Shown piece by piece: positions 57,078-64,000 of a stretch of DNA of 64,000 nt; the first letter of the stretch is position 1, and every line of letters starts with the position of its first letter. The stretch covers positions 115,816-179,815 of the forward strand of contig NZ_FNZN01000007.1 of assembly GCF_900109345.1 (NCBI RefSeq). Direction: 5' to 3'. Source of the stretch: Maribacter orientalis. Lineage in GTDB: Bacteria > Bacteroidota > Bacteroidia > Flavobacteriales > Flavobacteriaceae. Both the position numbers and the translations under genes were made by a program. The notes beneath the pieces were generated by a model. It did not search any database, was not told the DNA's origin, and worked only from the letters and a program-made list of their open reading frames with translations.

Positions 57078-58397
57078 ATGCCTAATTTTAAGGAGTTAAT
57101 TACCTTCGAATACGAAAATGAATACGAAAGTGCATACGATTTGTCTCTAAAACGAAATTTTTCCATCCCTAAAATATACTCCGCCAAAGGCGATTTGACT
57201 AAACGTTGGTATATTTATTTTTCTTTTCGGGACCCTGAAAATGGAAAATTGAAACGTCAAACTCCTTTTTATGGAGATACCAATAAATATAGGACCAAGG
57301 AAGATAGAATGTCGGTATTGGTTATCTATAGAAAAGTATTATTGCGGTTATTGAAAAAAGGTTATAATCCGTATTCCGATAATTTAGATCTACATAATAA
57401 TTTACAAACTAAAAATAAGGCAACCGCAACTTCAGATTTGTCCGATAAGTTCAATAATCGATCCGAAACCATTTTGGAAAAGCCAAATATGACCGTTCAA
57501 GAAGCATTTGAATTCGGAATTAAGCTAAAAGAAAAGGTAATAAGCCAAACTACCAAAAGAGATTATCAAAGTAAAATAAAAAATCTTCAAGAATGGCTTG
57601 CGACAAATCAACCGGAAATAAAATATATTACTGAACTTAATAAGAAAGTTGTCACCTCATTTCTAAACTATGTTCTGGATAAAAACAGTGCACGTACTAG
57701 AAACAATTATAAAAGTGATCTGAGCAGTATTATTCAGGTATTGGTAGACAATGAAATTATAAATAATAATTTTATAAAGAAAATACCTAAATTAAAGTCT
57801 AGCCCTGAACGGAACAAAACATATTCCCAGAATATTCAAGAAGAGATTTTTGAATATTTAGAAGTTCAAGACCCGATTTTATTACTCTACATAAAATTTA
57901 TCTCTTATAACTTTTTACGCCCAATAGAAGTCTGTCGACTTAAAGTAAAAGATATTGATATAAAAAATAGACGAATACAATTTAAAGCGAAGAACAGTCC
58001 ATTAAAAACCAAAATAATACCAGAGTTATTGTGGAGGGATTTGCCGGACCTTACGAAAGTGGATAAAGATGCCATCCTATTTACACCGGAGAAAATCGGT
58101 GACCAATGGGACACCGAAATTCGAAATAGAAGAGACTATTTCAGCAAACGTTTTAAAAAAGTGGTCAAGGACCATTTCAAATTAGGAATAGATTATGGGC
58201 TATATAGCTTTAGGCACACTTACATAACAAAAGTTTATAGAGCTTTAATGAAGGACGCCTCCCCCTTTGAGGCCAAGAGTAAGTTGATGCTGATTACAGG
58301 CCATTCTTCCATGACCGCCCTAGAAAAATATTTAAGGGATATAGATGCAGAACTACCCGAAGACTACTCTACAATGTTAAAAAATGTACATGAATAA
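57078..58397 (+). CDS. Tyrosine-type site-specific integrase of the tRNA-associated element
   Basis: 439 residues. An N-terminal arm-type domain (about 1-120) begins with FKELITFEYENEYESAYD, a SAM-like core-binding domain spans about 145-235 (TVQEAFEFGIKLKEKV), and the catalytic domain has the first Arg in NFLRPIEVCRL, YSFRHTYITKVY with His and the second Arg position, and GHSSMTALEKYLRDI with the nucleophile Tyr. It is expected to recombine the element with the tRNA. The start follows the T7 of the terminator directly with no Shine-Dalgarno. Its end overlaps the next gene by 14 bp. Confidence 0.9.
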   Translation: MPNFKELITFEYENEYESAYDLSLKRNFSIPKIYSAKGDLTKRWYIYFSFRDPENGKLKRQTPFYGDTNKYRTKEDRMSVLVIYRKVLLRLLKKGYNPYSDNLDLHNNLQTKNKATATSDLSDKFNNRSETILEKPNMTVQEAFEFGIKLKEKVISQTTKRDYQSKIKNLQEWLATNQPEIKYITELNKKVVTSFLNYVLDKNSARTRNNYKSDLSSIIQVLVDNEIINNNFIKKIPKLKSSPERNKTYSQNIQEEIFEYLEVQDPILLLYIKFISYNFLRPIEVCRLKVKDIDIKNRRIQFKAKNSPLKTKIIPELLWRDLPDLTKVDKDAILFTPEKIGDQWDTEIRNRRDYFSKRFKKVVKDHFKLGIDYGLYSFRHTYITKVYRALMKDASPFEAKSKLMLITGHSSMTALEKYLRDIDAELPEDYSTMLKNVHE

Positions 58398-59121
58398 TAC
58401 CTCTTTGGAAATATTGTACAAGCACCTGATCTCAAGTCTGTGGGAAGAGCTATTATTTTTTATCCCTGACAATAAAGTTTCAAATGAATTCTTGGACAAC
58501 CATAGAGAAATAGAATTGGAAAAACTTCAAAATAAGGTAATGGTCATAGATTATCATATGGGACCTATATTGTACGGAACAAGCAGGGATAATAACCTGA
58601 TAATATTTAAAGGGAGCACATTAAAAAAAAGTACCCGGCAATTATTAAATGCAAAAGCAAGTTCCGATGAAATGGAATTTAATTACATTCTAGAATTATA
58701 CTATGAGCAGGTTGAGTGCTTATATTTTATTACTAATTGGCTGAATGAAAATATAAAGCAGGTACTTCCTCAAGAGGACTCCATTAAAGGTTTGTTTAAA
58801 CTCCAATATAATTTCCACAAGACACATTTTGAAACAATTTTAAAACAGTTTTATCCCGATATGCAATCTTTGCCCAAAGGCAATTTTAATATCGGTAAAT
58901 CGTTAGAGACATCTTTCCCCCATTTATCCAATCTTTTTTATACTAGGGATAAACAAAATTTAGTACCAGGAGTTTCCGATTTACAAGAAAATATTCTTGA
59001 GATCTTACCCACTTCTACAAATCAGAAAACACTGATCAGAAAAAGTAAAGAACAGCCTATTATCTCAGATTCCGAAGCTGAGATAATTCTTTTGAAGCGT
59101 ATTTTCAAGATTGGCAGTTAA
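58384..59121 (+). CDS. Unrecognised protein coupled to the integrase
   Basis: 245 residues; the ATG at 58384 or 58390 both overlap the integrase stop. Hydrophilic and mixed alpha-helical, no signal peptide or membrane span. Segments such as LYKHLISSLWEELLFFIPDN and YYEQVECLYFITNWLNENIK look helical and could be protein-protein faces. It ends shortly before a 36-bp palindrome. I considered RteC (a Bacteroides element regulator of similar length) but its typical segments are not seen. Its position suggests a role in control or excision. Confidence 0.6.
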   Translation: MYMNNTSLEILYKHLISSLWEELLFFIPDNKVSNEFLDNHREIELEKLQNKVMVIDYHMGPILYGTSRDNNLIIFKGSTLKKSTRQLLNAKASSDEMEFNYILELYYEQVECLYFITNWLNENIKQVLPQEDSIKGLFKLQYNFHKTHFETILKQFYPDMQSLPKGNFNIGKSLETSFPHLSNLFYTRDKQNLVPGVSDLQENILEILPTSTNQKTLIRKSKEQPIISDSEAEIILLKRIFKIGS

Positions 59122-59134
59122 AAGATTTCAATAA

Positions 59135-59170
59135 ATTATGCGTAAATTAAACGTTTAATTTACGCATAAT
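59135..59170. repeat. 36-bp perfect palindrome
   Basis: Arms ATTATGCGTAAATTAAAC and GTTTAATTTACGCATAAT pair without any mismatch over 18 bp each, with no unpaired centre. It lies 13 bp past one stop codon and ends one base before the ATG at 59172. There is no T run, so a terminator is unlikely; a dimeric repressor operator or a recombination/replication site fits better. Confidence 0.85.
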
Positions 59171-59171
59171 A

Positions 59172-59594
59172 ATGAAAAAAACTGAAATTTGCATGTATTG
59201 TGGTGGTGACTATGTTCCAAAAAGAAGAGGGGCACAAAAGTTCTGTAGTAACTCTTGCCGAAGTCTAAACTGGAAAAACAACCAACAGATTAAAGGATCG
59301 AAGGTGCCTGATGTTGTTTCTATCGATGAAAAACCTATGATACCAGAAAAGCCAAGCTTACAGGAAAAAATGTCTTTAGCAGGAATTGGAAATGCTGCCG
59401 CAGGGATAGCTGTTGTAGAAATAGTTAAGAATATTGCAACTCCAAATGCCAGCAAACCAGCTACTAAAAAAGATATTGAAGATTTAAAAATGTTCATTAA
59501 ATCCCGTTATTTTTTAGTAAGGAACATAGGAAGGGATATTCATGGAAAACCTGCATATTATGACATAATAACAGGTAATATAATTCATATGTAA
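59172..59594 (+). CDS. Small zinc-ribbon protein with a hydrophobic middle
   Basis: 140 residues. The N-terminus has CMYCGGDYVPKRRGAQKFCSNSCRS, a C2-C2 zinc ribbon of the FCS/MYM type (C-x2-C, then C-x3-C). A hydrophobic stretch at about 72-90 (AGIGNAAAGIAVVEIVKNIA) might be a membrane segment. The C-terminal YFLVRNIGRDIHGKPAYYDI is beta-like. The start overlaps the edge of a perfect palindrome, so the gene is probably under its control. No function is known; a DNA-binding or phage-type accessory protein is plausible. Confidence 0.7.
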   Translation: MKKTEICMYCGGDYVPKRRGAQKFCSNSCRSLNWKNNQQIKGSKVPDVVSIDEKPMIPEKPSLQEKMSLAGIGNAAAGIAVVEIVKNIATPNASKPATKKDIEDLKMFIKSRYFLVRNIGRDIHGKPAYYDIITGNIIHM

Positions 59595-59665
59595 AATTCG
59601 GTCAACAGAAAATAATTTGCAATCTCATTACATCTTCGAAAAAAGTAAATCAAGCAGCCTTTCGA

Positions 59666-60064
59666 CTAGATTTTTAGATTTGAATTCTTTGCCATATAGT
59701 CCTGCCAAGTGACCAGTACATATTTTTCCTTCCCGTTCTCCGTTTTTTTAAGAAATCCGTATTCATATACAAAAAGATACACCTCCCCTTTTTGGTTTTT
59801 CCAGTAGTGGGTAAAAAAATTCGGGTCAAACCCCAGCTCCAATAGAACATTGCTCCGTATCGTTACCTTTCCCCCCTTGTTATGTTCCTTTAAGATCTTC
59901 CGGTTCAGTTTCAACTGGTTGTCCACTTTATTATAGAAACGTTCCGGTCGTTCCTTTTCCTTTTGGTATTGGTAGGCACTCTTGCAGTGTAGGTTGCAAT
60001 ATTTCTTATCCGTTCTACCGGTAAGTTGCTTTTTACAATAAAGACATTCATGCTGTAATCTCAT
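59666..60064 (-). CDS. Zinc-ribbon protein divergent from the cassette recombinase
   Basis: 132 residues. N-terminal CLYCKKQLTGRTDKKYCNLHCKSAYQYQ gives a C-x2-C ... C-x3-C zinc ribbon, similar in plan to the protein at 59172. It is followed by a charged helix (KEKERPERFYNKVDNQLK) and a beta-rich C-terminus (GEVYLFVYEYGFLKK). I recall similar proteins next to integrases in flavobacteria. The divergent layout with the recombinase and the inverted repeats between them suggest a regulator of, or partner for, that recombinase. No biochemical function is known. Confidence 0.7.
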   Translation of the reverse strand: MRLQHECLYCKKQLTGRTDKKYCNLHCKSAYQYQKEKERPERFYNKVDNQLKLNRKILKEHNKGGKVTIRSNVLLELGFDPNFFTHYWKNQKGEVYLFVYEYGFLKKTENGKEKYVLVTWQDYMAKNSNLKI

Positions 60065-60073
60065 TTCTATAAA

Positions 60074-60110
60074 CTTAAGTGAATCCCTATGCGAACAATA
60101 TTCGCTTAAG
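60074..60110. promoter_or_regulatory. Nested inverted repeats in the divergent region
   Basis: Outer arms CTTAAGTGAAT (60074-60084) and ATTCGCTTAAG (60100-60110) match at 10 of 11 positions; an inner repeat GCGAA (60091-60095) and TTCGC (60101-60105) overlaps the right arm. The region lies between the zinc-ribbon gene (-) and the recombinase gene (+), the place for an autoregulatory operator. Confidence 0.55.
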
Positions 60111-60167
60111 GTACGATTAAATCATTTCTATCCTATAAATTGCTCTTTTATCCATTAATCCAATAGT

Positions 60168-61310
60168 ATGGCTTCCTCTAATACATCACATTTAAAATCC
60201 ATAACCCTATATCATCTGATGATCAAGGGCCAAAAGATGATAGGCATAAAATTTTCTCCGGACAGACTTATACAGGGTCTGATTAAAGGCCTGCCCGACC
60301 CTAAATGGAGCTCTGGGCACCAAATGGCGTATATACCTCATACTAAAGAAAACCTAGGCATAATCTTCAACACCTTCAAGGGCGTTGTTTGGATCAATTA
60401 TAACCGTTTTCTTTCAAACAGGCCTTTAAACAAAAGTGATGAACCGGTAGATGTTTCTTGGTTCAGAAAACGAAAACCCATACCTGGATACCGCCTTTGC
60501 CCTGAAGAATACCTTTTAAAACTTGAACTGAAACGATATGCCAACGCTACCGTAAAAACCTATGTCAACTTCTTTGAAATATTCATCAATCATTACAAGG
60601 ACAGGGAATTGGCAACCCTTGATGAAAGTGATATCAGGGCCTTTCTTCAATTTTTGATTCATAAAAATGTATCGAACTCCTATTTGAACCAAGTGATCAA
60701 CGCTATAAAATTCTACTACGAAGTGGTCTTAGGGATGCCGAACAGATTTTATGAGATCGAGCGTCCTAGAAAATCATCGAAACTGCCCACTGTAATTTCA
60801 AAGCAAGAAATTCTTTCCGTTATCGATAACACCAACAATATAAAGCACAGGTGTATAATAGAACTGTTGTACGGTTCTGGATTAAGGCGCAGTGAACTGT
60901 TGAACCTAAAAATAAACGACGTGGACAGTAAACGCATGCTGATCTTGGTGAAGGATTCAAAAGGAAACAAAGACCGGAATACCCTATTGTCAAAGACTGC
61001 ACTGGAACATCTACGCATTTACTATAAACAATATAAACCCACCACATTTCTTTTTGAAGGCGGGCAGGGAAAACAATACAGTGCGGAAAGCGTACTCAAG
61101 ATCGTAAAAACGGCGTCGGTAAAAGCACGAATAAGAACCAGGGTAACACCCCATGTTTTAAGGCATAGTTTTGCCACTCATTTATTAGAATCGGGTGTTG
61201 ATCTGCGTCAAATTCAAGTATTACTAGGCCATGGATCAAGCAAGACGACAGAAATCTACACCCATGTAGCGGTAAATACTTTTGAATCAATTAAAAATCC
61301 TTTAGATTAG
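60168..61310 (+). CDS. Tyrosine recombinase of the cassette array (IntI-like, extra N-terminal domain)
   Basis: 380 residues. An N-terminal domain of about 100 residues (with SITLYHLMIKGQKMIGIKF and FNTFKGVVWINYNRF) precedes the core-binding domain (about 113-200, YLNQVINAIKFYYEVVLG) and a catalytic domain with LLYGSGLRRSELLNL (first Arg), the Lys loop KGNKDRNTLLS, TPHVLRHSFATHLL (His, second Arg), and LLGHGSSKTTEIYTHV (nucleophile Tyr). It ends IKNPLD, close to the SPLD near the end of IntI1. The IntI-specific insertion between the Lys loop and the HxxR motif is absent. Base composition looks richer in G and C than in the neighbours. It lies directly upstream of the cassette array, in the same orientation. 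Confidence 0.9.
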   Translation: MASSNTSHLKSITLYHLMIKGQKMIGIKFSPDRLIQGLIKGLPDPKWSSGHQMAYIPHTKENLGIIFNTFKGVVWINYNRFLSNRPLNKSDEPVDVSWFRKRKPIPGYRLCPEEYLLKLELKRYANATVKTYVNFFEIFINHYKDRELATLDESDIRAFLQFLIHKNVSNSYLNQVINAIKFYYEVVLGMPNRFYEIERPRKSSKLPTVISKQEILSVIDNTNNIKHRCIIELLYGSGLRRSELLNLKINDVDSKRMLILVKDSKGNKDRNTLLSKTALEHLRIYYKQYKPTTFLFEGGQGKQYSAESVLKIVKTASVKARIRTRVTPHVLRHSFATHLLESGVDLRQIQVLLGHGSSKTTEIYTHVAVNTFESIKNPLD

Positions 61311-61363
61311 TACGGACAAAAAAGAAATATACGTACCAGTACGCATATACAATTGTTGTAGTG
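61309..61363 (+). other. attI-like primary integration site
   Basis: The point 61354/61355 (in GTTGTAGTGC, 61354-61363) is where the first cassette begins, because these ten bases are the exact reverse complement of the left box of that cassette's own end site, GCACTACAAC (61857-61866). Around it lie TACAA (61347-61351) and TTGTA (61355-61359) as an inverted pair, and two AGTACG repeats (61309-61314, 61337-61342) 28 bp apart, possible extra recombinase sites. Confidence 0.6.
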
Positions 61364-61392
61364 CATTTAAAAAAATCAATTGAACCAAATAA

Positions 61393-61875
61393 ATGAACGA
61401 ATTCTTAGAACCGATTTTACTAAAAGAAGAATTCATTTTTAATGGAACTATCGACGAATTGAATGAAAGGATTCGATTAAATAATGACAAGAATTTTAGA
61501 ACGAAATGGTCAGAATACAATCGCTTTGAGTTCTTCGCAAAATGGTCGTTAGGTACATTGATGTTTAGAGGATTTCCAACTGCTGTGGATGGAATAAAAG
61601 GGTTTGCGGAGTTGACACGTAAAGGGGAAAATAAAACTCACGTGCTGTTGAAAACTAAGGTGCGGATTGAATTGTATTTTTTTCTAATAATTCTGACTAT
61701 AATATGTGTTGCTGGACTTGCCACTCAGACGGACTTCCCTATTTGGCTTTTGTTGCTGATTCCATTTGGACTTTTATGGTTCTGGTTTGTTTACCGAATT
61801 CAGGAGAAAATGTTATTTAAAAAATTACGCCTTTACTTAGCAGACGGAAAAAAAACGCACTACAACAATGCCTAA
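61393..61875 (+). CDS. Cassette 1 membrane protein, unknown
   Basis: 160 residues. The N-terminal 90 residues are soluble and amphipathic (FIFNGTIDELNERIRLNNDK and FRTKWSEYNRFEFFAKWS); two hydrophobic spans follow (about 93-112 and 116-134), then a short basic tail. No family recognised. The stop codon lies inside the left arm of the attC-like site, as in many integron cassettes. The ATG is 39 bp into the cassette and needs either readthrough from the recombinase gene or a promoter I do not see. Confidence 0.7.
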   Translation: MNEFLEPILLKEEFIFNGTIDELNERIRLNNDKNFRTKWSEYNRFEFFAKWSLGTLMFRGFPTAVDGIKGFAELTRKGENKTHVLLKTKVRIELYFFLIILTIICVAGLATQTDFPIWLLLLIPFGLLWFWFVYRIQEKMLFKKLRLYLADGKKTHYNNA

Positions 61876-62053
61876 ACGTAATGCGGACTTTTGGGCTAAA
61901 TCATAAGGTCTGTGTATATTTATAATGTCGCTAAATCTTTGGGATTTAGCTTTGGACAAAAAAGAAAAAGCAAAATCAAAAGCTATAGCTTCGGCGAAGA
62001 CGGAAACAAAAAGTTTCCTTGCCTCCGCACTACGCTTAGCTTAAACGTTGCAA
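61861..62053 (+). repeat. attC-like site 1 (193 bp)
   Basis: Left box TACAAC, 5-nt spacer, left stem CTAAACGTAATGCGG (61872-61886); right stem CCGCACTACGCTTAG (62025-62039), 7-nt spacer, right core GTTGCAA (62047-62053). The stems match at 13/15, and both differences are A opposite C on the top strand, which become T.G wobbles on the bottom strand. Inside is a hairpin GCTAAATC/GATTTAGC (61930-61950). Confidence 0.75.
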
Positions 62054-62071
62054 ACAAGCTAAAGAAACTTT

Positions 62072-63058
62072 ATGGGATTAACAGGATTTAGAGAAAGAAT
62101 ATTGAAATTAAGAGCTGAACAAGCTAAATCTATTCCATCCAGAGTATTTTTCAATCATTTTTTTTCGATTATTTATTGTATTGATTGTAACGAAGAAAAG
62201 TATGACTTAAAAAAAATCCCTTTTTACAACGGAATTAAAATTAAGAATGAGAAATTTAACATTGAAGAAGTACGAAAACTTCTTTGGAATTCTTGGAGTA
62301 CGGAATATGCATATAGAATTGGCGAAAAAATAGACAATGACGACTATTATAAATTTTCACTTCATTGGAATTTCCCACAAGCTTACTATTCTGTTTATTT
62401 ATCAATGACTGCTTTCCACGAAACTCAAGGAATTGCTAATGAACAACACGAAAAATCTATTAAACTATTTGGAAATTCAGTAAAAGACAAGCATTACCCA
62501 TCTGCAATAAGTTTTTACACCTCTGGACTTAAAGATGAGTTCGAATATTCTGGACTTCCAAACTTTAAAGGCTTCCCTAAAGAAAATAGTGTTTTAAGCA
62601 AAATTGAGTGTTTAGAAGATGCCGAATTGCAATTAGCTACATTTTTAAAAACTACAAGAAAGAAAAATGCGGAGGATAAAAGAAGTCGACTACAAAAACA
62701 AAATCACAGAGATTTTAGAAACGCAAAAGGAGAATTTAGAAAGTCATTTAAAAAAGAACATTGGGATATTATTTTCAAAACAATTCCGATAACTTCTGTT
62801 TTTAACTTATTATATAGATTGAGAATAAAAGCCAACTATCGAGACATTGAAAGTTTTGTAAATGCAGATATTGATTTTAAAAGTTTCCATTCAAGTTTAG
62901 GACAATTAATTTACTACTTGAATTTTATTCACGAAGCTTACATTGTAAAAGCAATTGGAATAGCTGAATATGAAAAAATATTAAAGGCATTTCCAAACCA
63001 CTTGAATGAAGAAACAGCATTGAAAAGATTTGAAGAAAATATTAAACCATTAGAATAA
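62072..63058 (+). CDS. Cassette 2 protein, unknown
   Basis: 328 residues, soluble and mostly helical. No family recognised. The segments SLHWNFPQAYYSVYLSMTAF and LLYRLRIKANYRDIESF are weakly like HEPN-type helical domains of toxin and defence systems, but the RxxxxH motif is not visible. A basic region (about 200-230, KTTRKKNAEDKRSRLQKQNH) might contact nucleic acid. The ATG is 25 bp into the cassette and the stop 8 bp before the attC-like left box, so the gene fills its cassette. Its AT-rich composition differs from that of the recombinase gene. Confidence 0.7.
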   Translation: MGLTGFRERILKLRAEQAKSIPSRVFFNHFFSIIYCIDCNEEKYDLKKIPFYNGIKIKNEKFNIEEVRKLLWNSWSTEYAYRIGEKIDNDDYYKFSLHWNFPQAYYSVYLSMTAFHETQGIANEQHEKSIKLFGNSVKDKHYPSAISFYTSGLKDEFEYSGLPNFKGFPKENSVLSKIECLEDAELQLATFLKTTRKKNAEDKRSRLQKQNHRDFRNAKGEFRKSFKKEHWDIIFKTIPITSVFNLLYRLRIKANYRDIESFVNADIDFKSFHSSLGQLIYYLNFIHEAYIVKAIGIAEYEKILKAFPNHLNEETALKRFEENIKPLE

Positions 63059-63066
63059 AGCCAGTT

Positions 63067-63196
63067 TACAACACCGTATATAATTTATTGCTAGTTCTAG
63101 CCTACTTACGAAAATCCTTGCGGATTTTCTATTCGGTTTTTATTTGCTAAATGTCTTGCTAAACCACGCAACAAACCATATACAAACACGTTGCCA
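63067..63196 (+). repeat. attC-like site 2 (130 bp)
   Basis: Left box TACAAC (63067-63072), 3-nt spacer, left stem GTATATAATTTATTGC (63076-63091); right stem GCAACAAACCATATAC (63168-63183), 6-nt spacer, right core GTTGCCA (63190-63196). The stems match at 13/16 and all three differences are A opposite C on the top strand, i.e. T.G on the bottom strand. The internal hairpin is GAAAATCC/GGATTTTC (63110-63129). Confidence 0.75.
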
Positions 63197-63277
63197 CAAA
63201 TATTGAGCAGGTGTAACATAAAGTGAAAAATCGCTCAATAAACTCTTAAAATCAGTACGTAATCGGATTCTAAATAG

Positions 63278-63436
63278 ATGGACCGAATTCATACTCGGTC
63301 GCGGTCTTTACGCAAAAAAGCTTTCCAATCTGTACGGAACGGTTACGCAAGCAGTACGCCAGCTTCCCCCTCCCGGGGTGGCAATTCGCAAGCAACACTT
63401 CAAGTACGCAAGCAAAACGCAAGCAACGCAGCATAG
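63278..63436 (+). CDS. Possible small ORF of cassette 3
   Basis: 52 residues, Arg/Ser/Ala-rich (MDRIHTRSRSLRKKAF at the start), ending 11 bp before the left box of the third attC-like site, which is where a cassette gene normally ends. No homologue recognised and the composition is peculiar, partly due to CGCAAGCA repeats in the DNA. It may be chance; the cassette could also be non-coding and serve as a promoter or spacer. Confidence 0.3.
   Translation: MDRIHTRSRSLRKKAFQSVRNGYASSTPASPSRGGNSQATLQVRKQNASNAA
63346..63425 (+). repeat. Four CGCAAGCA repeats in cassette 3
   Basis: The octamer CGCAAGCA occurs at 63346, 63387, 63407 and 63418. The stretch also holds a C/G-rich run (CCCCCTCCCGGGGTGG), unlike the AT-rich surroundings, and suggests a different origin for this cassette. 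Confidence 0.7.
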
Positions 63437-63446
63437 GAAATACTTG

Positions 63447-63644
63447 TGGCAACAAAACCTAAGTGTAATGCGGTGGTAAAGTTTTTAATCGCAACGTTTG
63501 TGTATATTTATAAAGGCGCAAAATCATTCGGATTTTGCTTCCGATAGTAAAAAATAAACCAAAACAAAATGCTTTCGCTTCGGGACGTGGCGCAAAGGGA
63601 ATCGCTTCCTTAAAACCGCACTACTCTTAGCTCAGGCGTTACAG
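63447..63644 (+). repeat. attC-like site 3 (198 bp)
   Basis: Left box GGCAAC (63448-63453), 5-nt spacer, left stem CTAAGTGTAATGCGGT (63459-63474); right stem ACCGCACTACTCTTAG (63615-63630), 7-nt spacer, right core GTTACAG (63638-63644). Stems match at 14/16. The internal hairpin is GCAAAATC/GATTTTGC (63518-63538). It shares the 15-mer TGTGTATATTTATAA (63499-63513) with site 1 (61911-61925), so these two sites are related. Confidence 0.75.
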
Positions 63645-63737
63645 CACATATGGTACGATATACAAACATCCTTTACAAAGTTATAGAAACATCGTTTACA
63701 CTTTTTAAGTTGCATTTGGAACCAACATTCAGATGCT

Positions 63738-64000
63738 ATGCCTTGGAAAGAACATACGATTATGGAACAAAAAATTGAATTTATCTGTGAATGGCGAACT
63801 GGAAAATACACCATCACGGAGCTTTGTAGAGTCTTTGAAATCTCAAGACCGACGGCTTACAAAATCATTGCCCGGTTTGAAAATGAAGGCTACGAAGGTC
63901 TTAGGGAGCTGTCCAGAAAACCACGTAGCCCGCACCCGAACGCGACCAACGAAAAAGTGTTGGACCGTATATTGAAATTGAAGGAAAAACACAAGGCATG
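63738..64000 (+). CDS. IS481-type transposase, 3' part outside the window
   Basis: The frame from the ATG at 63738 runs open to the window end (87 codons). It begins PWKEHTIMEQKIEFICEW and continues with YTITELCRVFEISRPTAYK, a helix-turn-helix, then RELSRKPRSPHPNAT and KVLDRILKLKEKHKA, which is the N-terminal DNA-binding part of IS481-family transposases as I remember them; the DDE catalytic domain would follow beyond the edge. The gene lies in the fourth cassette, about 100 bp from its start. I could not find a terminal inverted repeat. A competing frame starting at 63733 is a shadow. Confidence 0.85.
   Translation, partial: MPWKEHTIMEQKIEFICEWRTGKYTITELCRVFEISRPTAYKIIARFENEGYEGLRELSRKPRSPHPNATNEKVLDRILKLKEKHKA

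What the first reader, a model, noticed from the sequence alone, without database searches (positions are those of the whole stretch)
60168..63644. Integron-like cassette array with a non-IntI-type recombinase
A tyrosine recombinase is followed by three consecutive units, each one ORF (or none) plus a long imperfect inverted repeat with attC architecture. The decisive evidence is independent for each unit: the first bases of a cassette are the reverse complement of the left box of that same cassette's end site. GTTGTAGTGC at 61354 pairs with GCACTACAAC at 61857 (10/10). GTTGCAAAC at 62047 pairs with GTTTACAAC at 63064 (8/9, the mismatch a bottom-strand wobble). GTTGCCACAA at 63190 pairs with TTGTGGCAAC at 63444 (10/10). 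This is what circular excision and insertion at a G/TT point predicts, and chance would not give three such matches with three different sequences. The recombinase has an extra N-terminal domain and seems to lack the IntI insertion, so this may be a separate, possibly undescribed, integron class of Bacteroidota.
Basis: partly seen in the sequence, partly recalled or inferred. Interest (0 to 1): 0.95.

Follow-up and report, generated by a model that had tools for sequence, protein, structure and literature searches.

The report
Second integron class in Bacteroidota
Beside a tyrosine recombinase that is not of the known integron-integrase family lies a row of gene cassettes of the integron kind, whose end sites recur in 135 of 149 sampled genomes of the same family, and in related bacteria the tetracycline-resistance gene tet(X) sits in such a cassette, so this system likely moves genes, that one included, between bacteria.

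Summary
Window 60168-63644 is a tyrosine recombinase, a palindrome that is likely the insertion site, and three complete cassettes; the contig end cuts a fourth. A covariance model of the end site, trained without the window's sites, finds all three. In 22 loci, 249 of 249 sites lie downstream of and on the strand of the recombinase. Each cassette's first bases are the reverse complement of the left box of its own end site: 303 of 315 neighbouring pairs match at 5 or more of 7 variable positions (permuted within locus: at most 98 of 311). The stem covaries, and the bottom strand folds better in 299 of 320 sites. Identical cassettes with unrelated flanks, changing at C|GTT, show that units have moved. 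The recombinase lacks the 42-residue IntI insertion (present in 15 of 15 canonical IntI), and IntI forms its own clade. The site breaks the canonical GTTRRRY/RYYYAAC rule. Sites occur in 135 of 149 sampled genomes of the window's family and 94 of 296 of its phylum. tet(X) is a 1,327-nt cassette of this kind in 10 of 10 loci examined. Ten open-access literature searches found no description. Recombination itself was not tested.

The parts
60168..61310 (+). Tyrosine recombinase, 380 aa: N-terminal domain of about 90 residues (bbabba in the model), core-binding domain, catalytic domain with R240, K265, H329, R332, H355, Y364; no IntI insertion
61327..61354 (+). attI-like site: imperfect palindrome ATATACGTAC CA GTACGCATAT (61327-61348), spacer, boundary before GTT at 61355
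   Evidence: 28 of 46 loci have exact arms of 8 or more there (shuffles 1%); the window's own longest exact arm is 5
61355..62046 (+). Cassette 1 (692 nt), ORF 61393-61875 (160 aa, DUF986 match just under the gathering score)
61854..62049 (+). attC-like site of cassette 1 (left box to GTT)
62047..63189 (+). Cassette 2 (1143 nt), ORF 62072-63058 (328 aa, no Pfam family at gathering score)
63060..63192 (+). attC-like site of cassette 2
63190..63637 (+). Cassette 3 (448 nt), no convincing ORF
63441..63640 (+). attC-like site of cassette 3
63638..64000 (+). Start of cassette 4, cut by the contig end; holds the beginning of an ORF (63738 onward) with helix-turn-helix and IS481-type transposase matches, so an insertion sequence probably sits in it

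Best explanation
This is an integron-like cassette array: a tyrosine recombinase outside the IntI clade, a palindrome behind it that likely marks the entry point, and head-to-tail cassettes each ending in a site predicted to fold into a hairpin, which the recombinase likely excises as circles and inserts by recombining one folded strand at G/TT. Shown by sequence: array order, strand, cassette-specific pairing of each start with its own end box, covarying stem, fixed A.C oppositions, exact C|GTT limits of units found in different surroundings, absence of the IntI insertion, conserved catalytic residues. Inferred: that this recombinase does the cutting, that the bottom strand is the substrate (it folds better, and the top-strand A.C oppositions read G.T on it), that the cut is G/TT, that free cassettes are circles, that the palindrome is the attI, and that the ORFs, which start close behind the boundary, are read from outside. 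The N-domain may bind distorted or hairpin DNA (weak fold match only).
For: Sites: 249 of 249 downstream of and co-oriented with the recombinase in 22 loci (most of these hold only 1-2 kb upstream, the window 60 kb). In 47 loci from genome contigs (two are outgroup recombinases), 124 sites in 209,747 downstream bases against 1 in 429,547 upstream bases. Start/end pairing: 303 of 315 neighbouring pairs with 5 or more of 7; by difference, 92 of 94 in named loci that gave no training site; permuted within locus mean 3.10 against 6.46 of 7; 153 distinct 7-mers among 311, so not a conserved terminal repeat. Pairing runs to position 14; position 11 is never paired (0 of 303). Stem: 134 two-sided against 5 one-sided changes in 581 cells, slid versions 6-38 two-sided. 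Bottom strand folds better in 299 of 320 sites, control windows 74 of 293. Entry point: the first cassette starts within 320 nt of the recombinase stop in 47 of 53 loci. ORFs: longest forward in 277 of 309 cassettes, reverse in 20, none of 60 aa in 12; median start 27 nt from the boundary. Movement: 637-nt and 436-nt cassettes, each present twice and identical within one genome, and a 94.8% identical one in two genomes, flanks unrelated; tet(X) unit, five genomes 1327/1327 identical with unrelated flanks, except one pair that shares the left flank. Long arrays: 61 of the listed sites, all +, over 68 kb right after one recombinase in G040 (list cut at the best matches). Recombinase: the IntI segment is 38-39 residues against 80 in 15 of 15 IntI; IntI clade 100/100 apart.
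Against: No recombination was observed; no reads were searched for circles. Sites occur in genomes without a strong recombinase match: 51 of 64 at the 1e-60 threshold, against 84 of 85 with one; G097 has 26 sites and no match at 1e-25: orphan sites or another recombinase. 6 of 53 loci gave no entry point at 1 mismatch or better. Support for the family clade is moderate (87/86), so a common origin with IntI is open. The training sites were picked through the start/end pairing itself and then by hand (45 of 53 non-redundant cores, of 116, from 10 of 22 loci). In the shuffle control two of five measures are not above chance (pairs with a change on both sides 153/500, further pair types 225/500). 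Folding of the window's own sites alone is modest: bottom-strand z -1.5, -3.0, -2.3.
Confidence: 0.92

Rival explanations
1. A canonical integron whose IntI has merely diverged: same class, same origin, with the insertion lost.
For: IntI is the top Foldseek match (2a3v) and a near relative (TIGR02249 206 bits against a cut-off of 265); layout and pairing rule are those of integrons; some relatives (L119-L121, L136) have the classical divergent layout.
Against: The insertion is absent in every family row of the alignment that spans it, IntI is a separate 100/100 clade, only 17 of 363 starts fit GTTRRRY and 19 of 368 boxes RYYYAAC, and 15 canonical IntI loci (about 1.5 kb flanks) hold no R1 site (best E 0.79). 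Common ancestry before the insertion arose is not excluded.
Confidence: 0.2
2. The sites are a MITE-like or transposon end repeat that piles up there; the recombinase is a bystander.
For: Single sites are scattered in the window's genome (C17, C15, C24) and in G097.
Against: The complementary ends differ from cassette to cassette, unlike terminal repeats; 124 of 125 sites lie downstream in named loci; the first boundary sits at a near-constant distance from the gene.
Confidence: 0.04
3. A resident host recombinase (XerC/XerD) does the recombination and the linked gene regulates or is a relic.
For: The genome has two further Xer-like genes (L003, L004); an element that hijacks XerCD exists (CTX phage, in PMC4792948, passages seen).
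Against: The linked gene is conserved, with catalytic residues invariant in 51 of 51 aligned rows (one recombinase with an internal stop, L032, was left out), and lies at the start of the array.
Confidence: 0.04

Closest known systems
Integrons with IntI (mobile and sedentary chromosomal)
   Same: Integrase gene next to the start of the array, arrays of up to dozens of cassettes, one mostly forward ORF per cassette, hairpin-type site, start complementary to own left box, GTT boundary, stronger bottom-strand fold
   Different: No IntI-specific insertion; separate recombinase clade; boxes that pair over 14 positions with position 11 never paired instead of GTTRRRY/RYYYAAC; palindromic attI-like site; in the window the recombinase reads toward the array, which lies at its 3' end
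XerA / XerC / XerD recombinases
   Same: Best curated model is XerA-like (NF040815, 219.9 bits, cut-off 220); no IntI insertion
   Different: Linked to cassette arrays; an N-terminal domain in most members; the genome has separate Xer-like genes
tpnF/xerD - tet(X3) - ISCR2 (ISVsa3) units of Acinetobacter plasmids
   Same: tpnF is a family member that is shorter at its N-terminus (52% over residues 143-380), followed by a palindrome, a spacer and the same cassette start as the tet(X) cassettes
   Different: Moved by ISCR2 there (PMC7722449, passages seen); no end site is recognised behind tet(X3)

Membership tests
Integron (canonical) | Integrase with the IntI-specific insertion near patch III | tested here: not met
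   38 residues in the segment, IntI 80 in 15 of 15; searches show the same break; the feature is named as defining in PMC9668308 (passages seen)
Integron (canonical) | Integrase scores over the IntI family cut-off | tested here: not met
   TIGR02249 206.4 bits, cut-off 265; NF011946 145.6, cut-off 435
Integron (canonical) | attC boxes RYYYAAC / GTTRRRY (consensus recalled) | tested here: not met
   19 of 368 and 17 of 363
Integron (canonical) | Imperfect inverted-repeat site with conserved structure and little conserved sequence | tested here: met
   13-pair stem, 134 two-sided changes, invariant A.C opposition
Integron (canonical) | Cassette start complementary to the left box of its own attC | tested here: met
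Integron (canonical) | Insertion site attI next to the integrase, first cassette at it | tested here: met
   47 of 53 loci by position and pairing; site function not tested
Integron (canonical) | Integrase gene divergent from the array (usual layout, recalled) | tested here: not met
   Window: same direction; met in L119-L121 and L136 and in 9 tet(X)-bearing relatives
Integron (canonical) | Cassettes move as exact units | tested here: met
   by comparison of sequences
Integron (canonical) | Recombination of the folded bottom strand by the integrase | not testable with these tools
   Only a folding bias: 299 of 320
XerA (NF040815) | Score over the curated cut-off | tested here: not met
   219.9 against 220, a near miss
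Tyrosine recombinase | Catalytic R, K, H, R, H, Y | tested here: met
   R240, K265, H329, R332, H355, Y364 invariant in 51 rows; residue roles recalled
XPB damage-recognition / HARP-type fold (N-domain) | Fold match well above background | tested here: inconclusive

The most novel reading that the evidence does not exclude
Bacteroidota have their own integron class, run by a XerA-like recombinase that handles folded single-stranded sites without the IntI insertion and spread through the window's family of bacteria, and it is the machine that made tet(X) a mobile gene before ISCR2 carried it to Acinetobacter.
Probability: 0.65. Interest if true: 0.98.

Novelty: new variant of a known kind. Interest (0 to 1): 0.95.

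Why it matters
[quoted passage not shown] a review lists the phylum among those with integrons, PMC8618304, passage seen). Here 135 of 149 sampled genomes of one family carry sites of another kind, some over a hundred (G113 130, G014 113; G368 139). If the recombinase does recombine folded sites, the IntI insertion is not needed for that reaction, which makes a question of integron evolution testable: how a recombinase of double-stranded DNA came to use hairpins. It also offers a natural history for tet(X), for which the passages that I read name conjugative elements as the reservoir in its home bacteria (PMC7494873), and for the recombinase gene beside tet(X3). The arrays hold mostly genes of unknown function.

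Tried and rejected
Rfam has no match at E <= 1 in 59000-64000. A chain walk with the start/end rule alone was noisy (shuffles reach chains of 8), so a covariance model replaced it. Pfam finds nothing in four N-domains; the PDB sequence profile of the N-domain gives only chance-level hits. That the N-domain might be HARP-like was recalled before the fold search; the result is weak, and XPB domains rank above HARP. Housekeeping XerC/XerD was considered: the genome's Xer-like genes are other loci. IntI as the enzyme: among 198 genomes of the phylum, 57 have IntI over cut-off, none of the 58 matching genomes from the window's family. Of 20 named loci without a downstream site, 15 hold under 500 nt or nothing downstream; L058 (3.9 kb) has an exact start/box pair whose site the model missed; L094 (2.2 kb) gave none; L099 holds 757 nt; L102 and L103 are outgroup recombinases. 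Plasmid members: 9 weak sites (E <= 0.1) downstream of the recombinase in three plasmids, none at that level in a fourth, L142. Phage records give only partial matches; the ten listed are about 36% identical over 66-67%. Near tet(X)-bearing relatives a plausible first cassette start was seen within 350 nt of the recombinase in only 2 of 8 loci (L168, L170); in L169 tet(X) itself comes first. Literature: ten searches in the open-access library found no paper that describes this system; subscription papers and preprints were not searchable. The per-genome counts are capped by the candidates scored (23 and 11), those at 150.
Full report
WHAT IS THERE. The window is the end of contig C8 of a 4.16-Mb genome. 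At 60168-61310 lies a 380-residue tyrosine recombinase. 44 nt after its stop, behind an imperfect palindrome and a short spacer, GTT at 61355 opens a row of three complete cassettes (next boundaries 62047, 63190, 63638) and a fourth that the contig end cuts. Recombinases of this family often sit near a contig end on the array side (in one search, 15 of 47 named loci hold under 500 nt or nothing downstream), as expected if arrays of near-identical sites break assemblies. The window's genome has a second copy (75% identical) whose array also runs off a contig, and further site clusters at the starts of contigs C10, C12, C13 and C19.

THE SITE. 45 site cores, AAC to GTTR without the variable flanks, were aligned (45 of 53 non-redundant cores, of 116, from 10 of the 22 loci, chosen through the chain walk and then by hand). 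The consensus stem has 13 pairs; 134 cells changed on both sides and 5 on one side, against 6-38 two-sided cells when the partner is slid; two of the five shuffle measures are not above chance. Two top-strand oppositions never pair: one inside the stem, A opposite C in all 45 rows (columns 19/208 of A1), and one at position 11 of the outer pairing (0 of 303 paired, A opposite C in 251). On the bottom strand an A.C opposition reads G.T, and the bottom strand folds better in 299 of 320 sites in circular form and 279 of 320 in array form; control windows from cassette bodies go the other way, 74 of 293.

THE RULE. Over all loci, 315 neighbouring pairs were scored at seven variable positions: 201 match at 7, 88 at 6, 14 at 5, 12 below. 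Controls: other pairs in the same locus, mean 2.68 of 7 (n 3410); left box against the right end of the same integrated site, 2.80 (n 238); neighbours 6.45 (n 221). Permuting boxes within loci gives 3.10 on average and never more than 98 of 311 at 5 or better, against 299. Pairing fades to background after position 14. A start that pairs with its own box, but not with the box of the site that it now abuts, is what circular excision and insertion predicts.

LINK TO THE RECOMBINASE. 249 of 249 sites (E <= 0.01) in 22 loci are downstream and co-oriented. In 47 loci from genome contigs with up to 10 kb on both sides, 124 sites lie downstream and 1 upstream. The first cassette begins within 320 nt of the recombinase stop in 47 of 53 loci, mostly at 44-47 nt or nearby, behind a palindrome whose sequence varies but whose symmetry is mostly kept: mean exact arm 8.3 nt against 4.1 in shuffles, 28 of 46 loci with arms of 8 or more. 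Among 149 genomes of the family, 84 of 85 with a recombinase match at 1e-60 have sites, and 51 of 64 without. Several of the latter have weaker family members; G097 has none at 1e-25 and 26 sites.

CASSETTES. 324 cassettes, median 808 nt. Of 309 between 250 and 3000 nt, 277 have their longest ORF forward, 20 reverse, 12 none of 60 aa; the forward ORFs start at a median of 27 nt and cover a median of 90%. Of 110 ORFs scanned, a random draw from the forward ORFs of 80 aa or more, 44 Pfam families are hit in all, among them hydrolases, transporters, a ParE-type toxin, an immunity protein and a SLATT domain (25 families shown); padloc gives 14 models.

MOVEMENT. Other pairs share one or both flanks (L052, L080, L047) and may be block duplications.

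TET(X). The highest identity of the recombinase among the listed plasmids, 52% over residues 143-380, is to the gene called tpnF or xerD upstream of tet(X3) in Acinetobacter. Between it and tet(X3) lie a palindrome, a spacer and GTTATGTGCCATT (read by eye). In family f2 of the same order, 58 of 246 genomes have a tet(X) match at 1e-110; in 18 of them the best is 86-87% identical, in the other 40 about 58-65%. In the 10 loci returned the gene lies in a unit of exactly 1327 nt that begins with that same start and ends its site at GTT; 9 of 10 show the box AACGGCACATAAC at 7/7, and the tenth (L145, with an internal stop in the gene) carries it by the unit comparison. Five units are 1327/1327 identical while the 60 nt on either side agree at 15-30 of 60, except for one pair that shares its left flank. 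The tet(X) end site itself scores weakly with R1 (about 15 bits), so R1 undercounts. 16 of the 18 genomes have a family recombinase at 1e-40; in 9 of 18 it lies 0.4-16 kb from tet(X), divergent, on the near side. Against this: a plausible first-cassette start close to the recombinase was seen in only 2 of 8 such loci; behind tet(X3) in Acinetobacter no R1 site is found, and the AAC box that I see by eye matches at only 4 of 7. I conclude that tet(X) is a cassette of this kind in its home order, and infer that tet(X3) left it as the first cassette of an array with part of the recombinase. In the four tet(X) papers whose passages I saw (PMC7722449, PMC7494873, PMC12523817, PMC12561888) the word integron does not occur in the main text.

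SPREAD AND PRIOR KNOWLEDGE. R1 sites at E <= 1e-5: 135 of 149 genomes of the family, 94 of 296 of the phylum. Named carriers of the recombinase include Arenibacter, Maribacter, Zobellia, Pricia, Flagellimonas, Gelidibacter and Seonamhaeicola. [quoted passage not shown] The taxon models of attC in PMC8352920 (passages) name no Bacteroidetes. Canonical IntI occurs in the wider GTDB phylum, 57 of 198 genomes, none of them of the window's family.

VERDICT. It works like an integron (0.92). It is not a member of the IntI integrons by the tested features. I file it as a new class of a known kind; whether it arose apart from IntI or split off before the insertion was gained is open.

Noticed in passing
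L145-L154, L165-L172: tet(X) is carried as a cassette of this system in relatives of the same order, in 9 of 18 genomes within 16 kb of a family recombinase.
   Followed up: yes
L143 2555-3409, L144 5055-5909: The short recombinase (tpnF/xerD) upstream of tet(X3) in Acinetobacter plasmids belongs to this family and is followed by an attI-like palindrome and the tet(X) cassette start.
   Followed up: partly
L119, L120, L121, L136: Members without the N-domain have the classical divergent layout: array on the 5' side of the recombinase, first cassette 78-132 nt from it.
   Followed up: partly
L126 (G340:C1:2682000-2701000) and G340:C1:2933389-2934481: Repeated recombinase units (33-36% identity to the query, open frames of about 298-305 residues in several) with one R1 site about 133 nt upstream on the opposite strand in three of them: possibly another mobile element that uses the same site.
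   Followed up: no
G097: 26 sites in a genome with no family recombinase at 1e-25: orphan sites.
   Followed up: no
L139 (Chryseobacterium plasmid), L140 (Persicobacter plasmid), L141 (Rufibacter plasmid): Plasmid-borne family recombinases with weak sites downstream: mobile versions.
   Followed up: partly
window 57078-58397: A second tyrosine recombinase (439 aa) of another kind with two ORFs behind it, perhaps the end of another integrated element.
   Followed up: no
L094: A family recombinase on a contig filed as a Saccharospirillaceae MAG (Pseudomonadota), perhaps a misbinned contig; no site in the 2.2 kb downstream.
   Followed up: no
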